This document shows, one piece after another, positions 19,165-54,200 of a DNA stretch of 64,000 nucleotides (its first letter is position 1; each line of letters opens with the position of its first letter). Source of the DNA: Corallococcus macrosporus DSM 14697. Its GTDB lineage: Bacteria; Myxococcota; Myxococcia; Myxococcales; Myxococcaceae. The notes beneath the pieces are model-generated. The model was not told the DNA's origin and did not search any database. It saw only the letters and a program-made list of their open reading frames with translations. The position numbers and the translations under genes are program-made. The stretch is taken from contig NZ_CP022203.1 in assembly GCF_002305895.1 (NCBI RefSeq), forward strand, positions 6,296,001 through 6,360,000, read 5' to 3'.

Positions 19165-20490
19165 TCAACTGCCCAGCCGCGCGCGCGTCCAGACACGCTC
19201 CAGCGCCTGGGTCGCCGCGTGGGAGAGCTCCACGTAGTCGAGCCCCAGCACCTGGCCCTCGCGCACGCAGACGCGGCCATTGACGATGGTCCACCCCACC
19301 GGCGAATGCGCGAGCTGCCCGAGCAGATAGGGCGAGTAGCCCGTCTCCGGGTCCGCGGTGGGGACGACGTCATAGACGACGAGGTCCGCGATGCTCCCCT
19401 CCTCCACGTTGCCGGAGGGCAGGCCGAACAGCCGCGTGCACAGCTCCGCCGGGCCGTTGACCAGCAGGTGCGCCAGCGCGCCATCCACGTCCGGCAGCCG
19501 CCCGGAGCGGGAGATGCGCAGCACCCCCACCAGCGCGGCGAGCAGCTCGTCCTGGAGGCTGCCGTGGCCGCCCGTGCCGAGCCCCAGCAGGTGGACCCGC
19601 GACAGCACCGCGTCCATGGGGTCCGCGCCGCGCTCCAGCGTGCGCGCGCCCCGGGCCGCCAGCGCCACGAAGGCCCCACTCTGCTCCAGCAGCTCCGCCT
19701 CCGCGCTGTCCAGCACGCGCGCATAGCCCGCGATGGCGCGGGGCCCGAGCAGCCCCAGCGCGTCCAGCCGCGGCACCACCCGCTTGCCGTGCTGGGCGTA
19801 GGTGGTGGAGAGGTCGTCCTCGCTCTCCGCGAGGTGGAAGACGGTGGGCGCGTCCAGCACCCGGCTCAGCTCCGCGATGCGGCGCAGCAGCGCGTCATCA
19901 CAGGTGAACGACGCGTGGAAGCCGAGCGCGCCCCGCACCAGCGGGTGCTCCCGGTGCGCGCGGGTGAAGTCCGCGTTGGCGTCCAGCCACGTCTGCGCCT
20001 GCGCGGCGCCATCCAGCCCATGGGTGGAGTGGCTCGTCACCAGCCGCAGGCCCACGGCCTCGGCGGCGCGCGCCTGCGCGGCGAGCCCTCCCGCCACGTC
20101 CTGGCAGGACAGGTGCTCCACCGCCAGCGTGACGCCATTGCGCAGGGCCCGGGCCGCCGCGTAACGGGTGAGGGCCTCCACGTCCTCGTTGGTGAGCAGC
20201 CGCGCCACGTGCCGGAGCCGGTCCAGGCGCTCGCGCGGCGGGAGCATCAGGAAGTGCCCCGTGGGCGGCAGGAGCTGACCGTTGACGAGGTGCGTGTGGC
20301 AGTCCACCAGGCCCGGCGCCACCAGCCGGCCGCGACAGGCGACCTCCCAGTCCCCCGGCAGCACGGGCACCTGGGCGTCCGGCGCGACGCGACGGATGGT
20401 GCTGCCTTCCACCACCACGGCCATGCCATGACGGACGCGCCCGTCCGCCCTGAACACGGCACAGTTTTTCAGAAGCAGGCGGCCTTCCAT
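19165..20490 (-). CDS. Amidohydrolase-superfamily protein (SsnA/deaminase-like), ligand-poor
   Basis: This 441-residue TIM-barrel amidohydrolase is nearest in layout to SsnA and related aminohydrolases. LVDCHTHLVNGQ keeps the HxH pair, and FHLAESEDD keeps the next His and Glu. Where family members have VHG and a GTDG-type Asp motif, this protein has AGYARVLDSAE and GLGTGGHG, so one His and the metal/catalytic Asp appear to be missing. It may be non-catalytic or use another geometry. The RlmI-like gene follows in the same operon. Confidence 0.8.
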   Translation of the reverse strand: MEGRLLLKNCAVFRADGRVRHGMAVVVEGSTIRRVAPDAQVPVLPGDWEVACRGRLVAPGLVDCHTHLVNGQLLPPTGHFLMLPPRERLDRLRHVARLLTNEDVEALTRYAAARALRNGVTLAVEHLSCQDVAGGLAAQARAAEAVGLRLVTSHSTHGLDGAAQAQTWLDANADFTRAHREHPLVRGALGFHASFTCDDALLRRIAELSRVLDAPTVFHLAESEDDLSTTYAQHGKRVVPRLDALGLLGPRAIAGYARVLDSAEAELLEQSGAFVALAARGARTLERGADPMDAVLSRVHLLGLGTGGHGSLQDELLAALVGVLRISRSGRLPDVDGALAHLLVNGPAELCTRLFGLPSGNVEEGSIADLVVYDVVPTADPETGYSPYLLGQLAHSPVGWTIVNGRVCVREGQVLGLDYVELSHAATQALERVWTRARLGS

Positions 20491-51893: not shown

Positions 51894-52115
51894 CTACTCC
51901 TTCTTGGCGGACGTCGGCGACGCGCCGTACTTCTTGCGGAAGCGGTCGATGCGGCCGGCCGTGTCCACGAGCTTGTACTTGCCCGTGAAGAAGGGGTGGC
52001 ACTGCGAGCAGATTTCCACCGAGAACGAGCCGCGGGTGGACTTCGTCTCCACGACGTTGCCGCACATGCACGTCACGCGGGACGGCGGATAGACGGGATG
52101 GATTTCAGACTTCAT
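51894..52115 (-). CDS. rpmE: 50S ribosomal protein L31 (zinc-binding form)
   Basis: This 73-residue protein of the large ribosomal subunit has TCMCGN and [13 protein letters not shown], the four zinc cysteines of the C+ type. [11 protein letters not shown] near the C terminus is the usual rRNA-binding segment. A zinc-free paralogue may exist elsewhere in the genome. It stands alone, 218 bp from the methyltransferase gene. Confidence 0.97.
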
Positions 52116-52224: not shown

Positions 52225-53370
52225 TCAATGGGCCGCCGAGCCGGGGGGCTCGACGCGTTCCACCTGCTTCTGGACGGCCGGATCCGCCGGGACGTCACCG
52301 CCGAGCTGGATGTACGACAATAGATGCGTGCGCCCGCCCGAGGTTGCGCCGCCGCCCAGCGTCTTCTCATAGGCCGCGCGGTTGGCCTCCAGGCTGGCGA
52401 CCGTCGTCTCCAGGGCCTGCCGCTCCCTGGCGTCCTGGGTGCCCGCCAGCCGCGTCTTGGCCCGGGCGAGGTTGCCTTCGAGCAGGCGGAGCTGCTGCCG
52501 CGTCCGCTCCTGGACGCCGGCGTCGGCGAAGCGGCCCTTGCCGTCCAGTTGGAGCACCAGCTTCGCCAGCTCGCGGCCCCGGGCCCCCGGGGGAATCACG
52601 GTGGCCAGGGCCTGCTGCTGGGCCATGCCCGGCCCCCGGCCCTCGTGGGACTGCACCACGAAGTCCACGCCCTCCGCCTGGTCGGCCAGCTTGAGCGCCT
52701 CGTCGCGGGGCAGCGCCGCGAGCACCACCACCAGGTCCACCTTGGACGTCTCCCGCAGGCGCTTCGCCTCGGCGGCCACGGCGGGTTGCACGGGGAGCCC
52801 CTGCACCACCTCCTGGGCCTGCCCCGGAGCGGCCCGCCCCACGGGCACCGGCTTCGCCGTGACGGGCGAGACGCCCACCACGCCCACCTTCACGCCGCCC
52901 ACCGTCGTCACCAGGGAGGCCGGGAAGAGCCGCTTGCCCTTCGCGTCCGCGAGGTTCGCCGACAGGAGCTTCAGCTTCGCCTTCCGCGTCTGCCGCTTGA
53001 GAAAGCCCACGCCCAGCCCGAGGTCGCGCGTGCCCACCGCCATGGCCGCGGTGCCCTGCGCGTCCATCTGCGACAGGATGAGCTCCGCGCGCGCGCGGGC
53101 ATCCGGCGCCTGCGCGCTGTCCCGGCTCTTGAAGAGCGCATTGCCGGCGTCCAGCACGAGCACGGGTGCGCCCTGCTCGCGCTCCTTCTCAATCGCGACT
53201 TTTCGCCTGGCCAGACCGCCAGCGGGGTTGTGCCTTCAACCACAGGGGGCGACTTCGCCCCCATTGTCTCCCGTGAAGAGCAGGACGAGCTGCCTGGGGG
53301 CCGCCCCCGCCACCAGGGGCAGCAGGAGCAGCAGCGCCAGCGCGGCCAGCTTCAGCGGACGCGGGCTCAC
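52225..53370 (-). CDS. Metallophosphoesterase/5'-nucleotidase-like protein with in-frame TGA (candidate selenoprotein)
   Basis: Read through one TGA (53236-53238, codon 45) this encodes 381 residues. A signal peptide (LALLLLLPLVAGAA) is followed by LLFTGDNGGEVAPCG, then the TGA, then RHNPAGGLARRKVAIEK and VLVLDAGNALF without any frame change. Relatives have PCGC...GGLARR, so the TGA falls on the second Cys. A hairpin with loop GGUCUG starts soon after. Metal-binding motifs of true phosphatases are degenerate (GTRDLG for GNHD/E, QSHEGRG for GHxH). The GTG start at 53370 overlaps the upstream lipoprotein stop by 4 bp. The alternative reading is a pseudogene with a Cys-to-stop mutation. Confidence 0.7.
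53204..53238 (-). promoter_or_regulatory. UGA codon with SECIS-like hairpin
   Basis: Eighteen nucleotides after the UGA comes the loop GGUCUG on a stem CUGGC/GCCAG, extendable by two pairs past one bulged G. In E. coli fdhF the same GGUCUG also starts 18 nt after its UGA and contributes to the SelB-binding loop. Part of the match is forced by the Gly-Gly-Leu coding of the family, so it supports but does not prove selenocysteine insertion. Confidence 0.5.
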
Positions 53371-54200
53371 TTCTTGGCCTTCTTCGCCTTCTTGTCCATC
53401 TCGGCGATGCGCGCCTTGGCCGTCTTCGCCTCGGCGGACTTCGGGTAGCTCTTGATGAGCTCCTCCAGCGCCAGCCGCGACTCCTCCTTCATCTTCAACC
53501 GGGCGAAGCAGTCCGACGAGCGCAGGTACGACTCCGGCGCGGAGGCCGCCTTGGGGAAGTCCTGCAGCACCTTGCCGTACTCGAAGAGGGCCTCGCGGCA
53601 CTTCGACTCGGAGAAGTACGTCTCACCCAGGCCGAAGTGGGCGTCCCCCACCAGCCCGTCCTTGGGCCACTTCTTCATGAACTCATTGAAGAGCTGGCGC
53701 GCCAGGAGCAGGTCGCCGGCCTTGGCCTTCTGGTTGGCGAGCGCGAGGAACTCCTTCTTGTCCGTGGGGCGCTTGAGCTCCTCGGCCTTCTTCTTGGCCT
53801 CGGCCTCCTTCAGCGCGGCCTCGCCCTGCATGGCCACCAGCTTCTGGTCCTGCGCGGCCAGCGCCGCCTCCAGCTCGGTGATTTTGTGGAGGTACGTCTC
53901 CACCTGGCCGCGGAGCTGGGCGAGGTCCTCCACCGTCTTCTGGAACTGGATGCCGATGTCCGCGTCCTTGCGGCGCGACGCGGTGTCCAGCCCCTTGAGG
54001 GCCTTGGTGACCTCGGCGACCTTCTCGTCGATTTTCGGGAGCGTGGCGGCGAGCTGCTCGCGCGTCTCCTTCAGCTCCGACTGAATCCGCGTCGTGTCGG
54101 TGCCGAGCCGGTCGACCTTCGCCTCGAGGGCGCGGCCGCGGTCAGCGGGATAGAAGCAACCAGGGAGGACCAGCAGGGATATCAGCGCCAGGCGTCGCAT
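53367..54200 (-). CDS. Coiled-coil TPR lipoprotein (CpoB/YbgF-like)
   Basis: This 277-residue lipoprotein has a signal peptide and lipobox LVLPGC. Residues 25-150 are charged heptad-type coiled coil, then TPR repeats follow (LLLARQLFNEFMKKWPKDGL, GDAHFGLGETYFSESKCREA, SRLALEELIKSYPKSAEAKT). This order matches CpoB/YbgF, which in other bacteria links Tol-Pal to peptidoglycan synthesis; no tol-pal genes are here. The ATG at 54200 is clear. The Lys-rich end (KKAKKAKK) overlaps the GTG of the next gene. Confidence 0.82.
   Translation of the reverse strand: MRRLALISLLVLPGCFYPADRGRALEAKVDRLGTDTTRIQSELKETREQLAATLPKIDEKVAEVTKALKGLDTASRRKDADIGIQFQKTVEDLAQLRGQVETYLHKITELEAALAAQDQKLVAMQGEAALKEAEAKKKAEELKRPTDKKEFLALANQKAKAGDLLLARQLFNEFMKKWPKDGLVGDAHFGLGETYFSESKCREALFEYGKVLQDFPKAASAPESYLRSSDCFARLKMKEESRLALEELIKSYPKSAEAKTAKARIAEMDKKAKKAKK

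What the first reader, a model, noticed from the sequence alone, without database searches (positions are those of the whole stretch)
52225..53370. Candidate selenoprotein: TGA at a conserved Cys with a SECIS-like hairpin
A single TGA interrupts an otherwise continuous frame in a metallophosphoesterase-like gene. Coding resumes in the same frame (GGLARR...VLVLDAGN), and the TGA replaces the second Cys of the PCGC motif seen in relatives. A stem with loop GGUCUG begins at the right distance, with the loop exactly 18 nt after UGA, as in E. coli fdhF. The start codon and downstream frame look maintained, unlike in a decayed gene.
Basis: partly seen in the sequence, partly recalled or inferred. 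Interest (0 to 1): 0.85.

Follow-up and report, generated by a model that had tools for sequence, protein, structure and literature searches.

The report
Myxobacterial UshA-like selenoprotein gene
The gene almost certainly uses a "stop" codon (UGA) to insert the rare amino acid selenocysteine, because dozens of related bacteria keep the same UGA and the same RNA hairpin after it; it is a short, heme-less version of an already known but functionally uncharacterised selenoprotein family.

Summary
On the minus strand (53370-52225) a 381-residue frame has a single in-frame UGA at codon 45 in a PCG-U motif, with a hairpin whose GGUCUG loop begins exactly 18 nt later. The genome carries tRNA-Sec, SelA, SelB, SelD and a Sec-type formate dehydrogenase whose hairpin has the same loop at the same distance. 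All 27 genomes of the genus keep exactly one TGA; across the order TGA alternates with Cys codons only. In one complete relative the orthologue at the same locus reads Cys, and that genome lacks SelA and any good tRNA-Sec match. The hairpin is under RNA-level constraint: the loop Gly codon is GGT in 81 of 82 TGA loci, against 4% elsewhere in these genes. So this is a genuine selenoprotein gene, not decay or error.

The family is known: "UshA-like, CxU" (2008 ocean survey; NCBIfam NF041198). The window protein is a shorter variant. It lacks the cytochrome c554-type C-terminus, scores below the family cut-off, and has lost nearly all metal ligands of the phosphoesterase fold, so it is probably not a phosphatase. 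Most likely it is a periplasmic selenol/thiol redox protein on a dead phosphoesterase scaffold; that function is inferred. No paper found here describes it in myxobacteria.

The parts
52225..53370 (-). UshA-like selenoprotein gene, 381 aa read with UGA = Sec; GTG start 53370, TGA stop 52227-52225
   Evidence: single TGA, orthologues of about the same length in 27/27 genomes of the genus.
53236..53238 (-). UGA codon 45 = selenocysteine of the PCGU motif (C43-G44-U45)
   Evidence: TGA or a Cys codon at this position in every locus where it could be assigned.
53204..53225 (-). SECIS-like hairpin, loop GGUCUG at 53217-53212, 18 nt after the UGA
   Evidence: loop and stem conserved in TGA genes, lost in Cys genes.
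53299..53370 (-). N-terminal signal-peptide-like segment (residues 1-24, ...LLLLLPLVAGA-AP), predicted export to the periplasm
   Evidence: Read from the sequence; inference, no signal-peptide predictor was run.
53367..54200 (-). YbgF/CpoB-like TPR lipoprotein gene, its TGA stop overlapping the GTG start of the selenoprotein gene by 4 nt (GTGA)
   Evidence: TIGR02795 87.4 bits (cut-off 90.1); same neighbour in nearly all orthologous loci with enough flank.
51894..52115 (-). rpmE (ribosomal protein L31), downstream neighbour, conserved in most loci

Best explanation
The gene encodes a genuine selenoprotein. The UGA at codon 45 is decoded as selenocysteine by the SelA/SelB/SelD/tRNA-Sec system, directed by the hairpin with a GGUCUG loop just downstream (sequence evidence strong; incorporation not shown biochemically). 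The product is the UshA-like domain of the known CxU (PCGU) selenoprotein family without the C-terminal cytochrome c554-type domain of the family model. Inferred: it is exported to the periplasm and, having lost the His ligands of the metallophosphoesterase site, works as a selenol/thiol (C43/U45) redox centre on an inactive phosphoesterase scaffold, exchanging electrons with a separate partner. The stated confidence is for the selenoprotein identity; for the redox function alone it is about 0.5.
For: One TGA only, frame maintained. tRNA-Sec with TCA anticodon, 69.8 bits; SelA 545 bits; SelB (16); SelD 386 bits. FdhA in the same genome has TGA at codon 239 and a GGTCTG loop 18 nt after it. TGA/Cys alternation. 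G077, a 100% complete genome, has the positional orthologue with TGC, no SelA and only a sub-cut-off tRNA-Sec match, and its loop has become GGCTTG. GGT at loop codon 52 in 81/82 TGA loci against 4.0% elsewhere in these genes; AGA/AGG at stem codon 55 in 75/82 against 4.2%. Stem covariation 0.159 against 0.074 in shuffles, 0/500 as high. NF041198 match E 1.2e-51. Fold: UshA/CD73 5'-nucleotidases, Foldseek E 7e-19. Ligand losses in the alignment: DxH His lost in 44/46, GNH His to Arg in 42/46, third His lost, GD Asp to Asn in 41/46 (62). Cytochrome c554 on the full-length Cys paralogue of the same genome.
Against: The window's own hairpin is not more stable than shuffles. Score is below the NF041198 cut-off (175.9 against 275). 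G039 has TGA but an unusual loop (GGCTTC); G124, an 87% complete MAG, has TGA but no SelA or good tRNA-Sec match. G129 and G090 keep SelA although G129's copy is Cys. The redox function, the periplasmic location and any electron partner are untested.
Confidence: 0.95

Rival explanations
1. Decayed gene: the TGA is a genuine nonsense mutation and the downstream frame is residual.
For: The window's hairpin alone is not exceptional in stability.
Against: The same single TGA is kept in 27/27 genomes of the genus and across families, with the downstream residues conserved; differences to close relatives downstream favour third codon positions.
Confidence: 0.01
2. Sequencing or assembly error at the TGA.
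For: None found.
Against: Independent assemblies of dozens of species have the same codon.
Confidence: 0.005
3. UGA is read through by another route (near-cognate tRNA or recoding as Trp/Arg) rather than as Sec.
For: Incorporation of selenium was not measured.
Against: The alternative residue in relatives is always Cys, SelA/B/D and tRNA-Sec are present, the SECIS-like loop is conserved, and a relative without SelA and tRNA-Sec has Cys.
Confidence: 0.02
4. Selenoprotein as stated, but with a metal-dependent hydrolase function (nucleotidase or SoxB-like thiosulfohydrolase) in which Sec is a metal ligand or nucleophile.
For: Fold of UshA/CD73 and a SoxB profile match (43.1 bits, far below its cut-off of 550). 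D35 invariant, D74 and D116 nearly so, and H242 present in 30/46.
Against: All but a remnant of the His/Asn/Asp metal set is lost.
Confidence: 0.15

Closest known systems
UshA-like (seleno)protein, NCBIfam NF041198 (UshA_like_PCGU); 'COG0737, UshA-like, CxU' of the GOS survey (PMC2398784) and reviews PMC9312934, PMC13188914
   Same: PCGU/PCGC motif, UshA-like domain over profile positions 16-374, Sec/Cys alternation.
   Different: No C-terminal 145 positions (cytochrome c554-type in the Cys paralogue of the same genome); 175.9 bits against a cut-off of 275; no paper found here mentions it in myxobacteria.
UshA-like (seleno)protein family 2, NF049981 (CxxU)
   Same: Selenoprotein on a UshA-like fold.
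   Different: CxxU, not CxU; 36.2 bits against a cut-off of 140.
E. coli UshA, human CD73 (5'-nucleotidases); SoxB
   Same: Metallophosphoesterase fold (Foldseek E 7e-19 to 2ush).
   Different: Metal-binding His residues lost; no C-terminal substrate-binding domain; PCGU motif instead.
FdhA SECIS (E. coli fdhF, from memory; FdhA of this genome)
   Same: GGUCUG-type loop 18 nt after the UGA.
   Different: Stem sequence is different; the window stem has two departures from the stem of its own family.

Membership tests
Bacterial selenoprotein genes | Single in-frame UGA at a position that is Cys in homologues | tested here: met
Bacterial selenoprotein genes | SECIS hairpin immediately downstream, conserved with the UGA | tested here: met
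   weak on the window sequence alone (31).
Bacterial selenoprotein genes | SelA, SelB, SelD and tRNA-Sec in the genome | tested here: met
Bacterial selenoprotein genes | Selenium shown in the protein | not testable with these tools
   Needs 75Se labelling or mass spectrometry.
NF041198 UshA_like_PCGU | Curated score cut-off 275 bits | tested here: not met
   175.9 bits; its Cys orthologue in G077 178 bits.
NF041198 UshA_like_PCGU | PCG(U/C) motif in a UshA-like domain | tested here: met
NF041198 UshA_like_PCGU | C-terminal region (profile 375-519) with heme-binding CxxCH motifs | tested here: not met
   Match ends at 374/519; the region carries CxxCH in the 520-aa paralogue.
UshA/5'-nucleotidase metallophosphoesterases | DxH, GD, GNH, H and GHxH metal ligands | tested here: not met
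   only the first Asp is invariant; His residues mostly replaced.

The most novel reading that the evidence does not exclude
A heme-less subfamily of UshA-like selenoproteins, conserved at one chromosomal site in myxobacteria, uses a CGU selenol-thiol pair on a dead phosphoesterase scaffold for a new periplasmic redox reaction, with a separate protein replacing the fused cytochrome of its relatives.
Probability: 0.35. Interest if true: 0.55.

Novelty: new variant of a known kind. Interest (0 to 1): 0.42.

Why it matters
It firmly adds a second selenoprotein beside formate dehydrogenase to this myxobacterial genome, in a position where standard gene calling would cut the gene at the UGA or start it downstream (the longest table-11 ORF in this frame begins at residue 70). 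It defines a cytochrome-less form of a selenoprotein family of unknown function. And it offers natural Sec/Cys swaps, some in genomes without SelA, for testing what selenium contributes.

Tried and rejected
Rfam scan of the window gave nothing above the gathering scores. Synonymous-site conservation of the SECIS within 13 close relatives was uninformative (55% single-codon sites inside, 62% outside), so the wider family was used. A genome-wide search with a covariance model of this hairpin found the window gene (57.1 bits, E 1e-9) and nothing else convincing (next 20.6 bits); it does not list FdhA, whose stem differs, so it does not rule out other selenoproteins. The plasmid collection had no homologue. 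Nonsense mutation and sequencing error were rejected by conservation.

Full report
What is there. On the minus strand, 53370 to 52225, a frame of 381 codons starts with GTG, has one internal TGA (codon 45, 53238-53236) and ends at a TGA stop. The residues around it read ...LLFTGDNGGEVAPCG-U-RHNPAGGLARRK... The gene starts inside the stop of a YbgF/CpoB-like TPR lipoprotein gene (GTGA overlap) and is followed by rpmE.

Machinery. The window's genome (8.97 Mb, one contig) has tRNA-Sec with a TCA anticodon, SelB, SelA and SelD. It also has a formate dehydrogenase alpha subunit with an in-frame TGA at codon 239, GGTCTG again 18 nt after the UGA (NF041513 at 1872 bits). This is an independent Sec gene in the same genome with the same loop and spacing.

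Relatives. In 145 genomes of the order, 125 have a match; all 27 of the genus, the window's own included, have an orthologue with exactly one TGA. Reading the codon in 104 loci, some of them the same genome reached by two searches, gave 83 TGA, 18 TGC, 1 TGT and 2 not covered. Named records include Myxococcus, Pyxidicoccus, Corallococcus, Archangium, Hyalangium and Citreicoccus. Some genomes carry an additional Cys paralogue.

A natural experiment. G077 is 100% complete on two contigs. Its orthologue lies between the same TPR gene and rpmE, reads PCGC (TGC), and has GGCTTG where the loop would be. The genome has only a 23-bit fragment against SelA and no tRNA-Sec match above the family cut-off, while three genomes of its genus (G078-G080) have TGA, SelA and tRNA-Sec. 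G092, G054 and G144 also combine Cys with no SelA, though they are less complete. G129 has SelA and Cys, so the swap does not require loss of the system. G124 (87% complete) has TGA without a detected SelA; it may be missing sequence.

RNA-level constraint. Among 40 distinct TGA sequences the loop is GGTCTN in 39; among 18 distinct Cys sequences only one has GGTCTG, one codon out of register. The Gly codon of the loop is GGT in 81 of 82 TGA loci, against 4.0% of Gly codons elsewhere in the same genes; the stem Arg codon is AGA or AGG in 75 of 82 against 4.2%. These counts include related sequences, so they are not independent events. On 27 diverse sequences the 8-bp stem is formed in 83% of cells and its covariation score is 0.159, against 0.074 in shuffles (0 of 500 as high) and at most 0.105 for slid versions. 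The window's own stem is weaker: its fold is no better than shuffles.

Protein. The family match is NF041198, UshA_like_PCGU, E 1.2e-51 but 175.9 bits against a cut-off of 275, covering profile positions 16-374 of 519. The missing part is a cytochrome c554-type region in the 520-aa Cys paralogue of the same genome. The predicted structure (pLDDT 88, pTM 0.85) matches 5'-nucleotidases. On the alignment of 46 relatives C43 is invariant and position 45 is Sec or Cys in all; the first Asp of the metal site is kept, but the DxH His, the GNH His and the later His are lost and the GD Asp is Asn in 41 of 46. A two-metal phosphohydrolase site is therefore unlikely. A selenol/thiol redox role in the periplasm is the best-supported guess; export rests only on the look of the N-terminus.

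What is known. UshA-like CxU selenoproteins were listed in the 2008 ocean survey (PMC2398784) and in later reviews (PMC9312934, PMC13188914). The passages read there give no function. Searches of the held papers for myxobacterial selenoproteins found nothing relevant, but most subscription papers are not held. Shown here: conserved UGA, conserved hairpin, machinery, Sec/Cys alternation. Inferred: actual selenium incorporation, location and redox function.

Noticed in passing
L141:481-3900 (genome 4685480-4688899): Second selenoprotein gene of the genome: formate dehydrogenase alpha with TGA at codon 239 and a GGTCTG loop 18 nt downstream.
   Followed up: yes
L134:760-2322 (genome about 6.873 Mb): Full-length PCGC (Cys) paralogue with a C-terminal cytochrome c554-type domain, the architecture of the NF041198 model.
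   Followed up: partly
L054 (BNCN01000006.1): Record titled 'Comamonas sp. KCTC 72670' carries the whole myxobacterial locus with conserved neighbours (80% identical protein); the record is probably mislabelled.
   Followed up: no
19791-19885: ARAGORN's only tRNA call in the window, a 95-nt tRNA-Glu, looks like a false positive (G+C-rich, coding-like sequence).
   Followed up: partly
L124 (G039): A distant homologue with TGA but loop GGCTTC, the one departure from GGTCTN among the TGA sequences.
   Followed up: no
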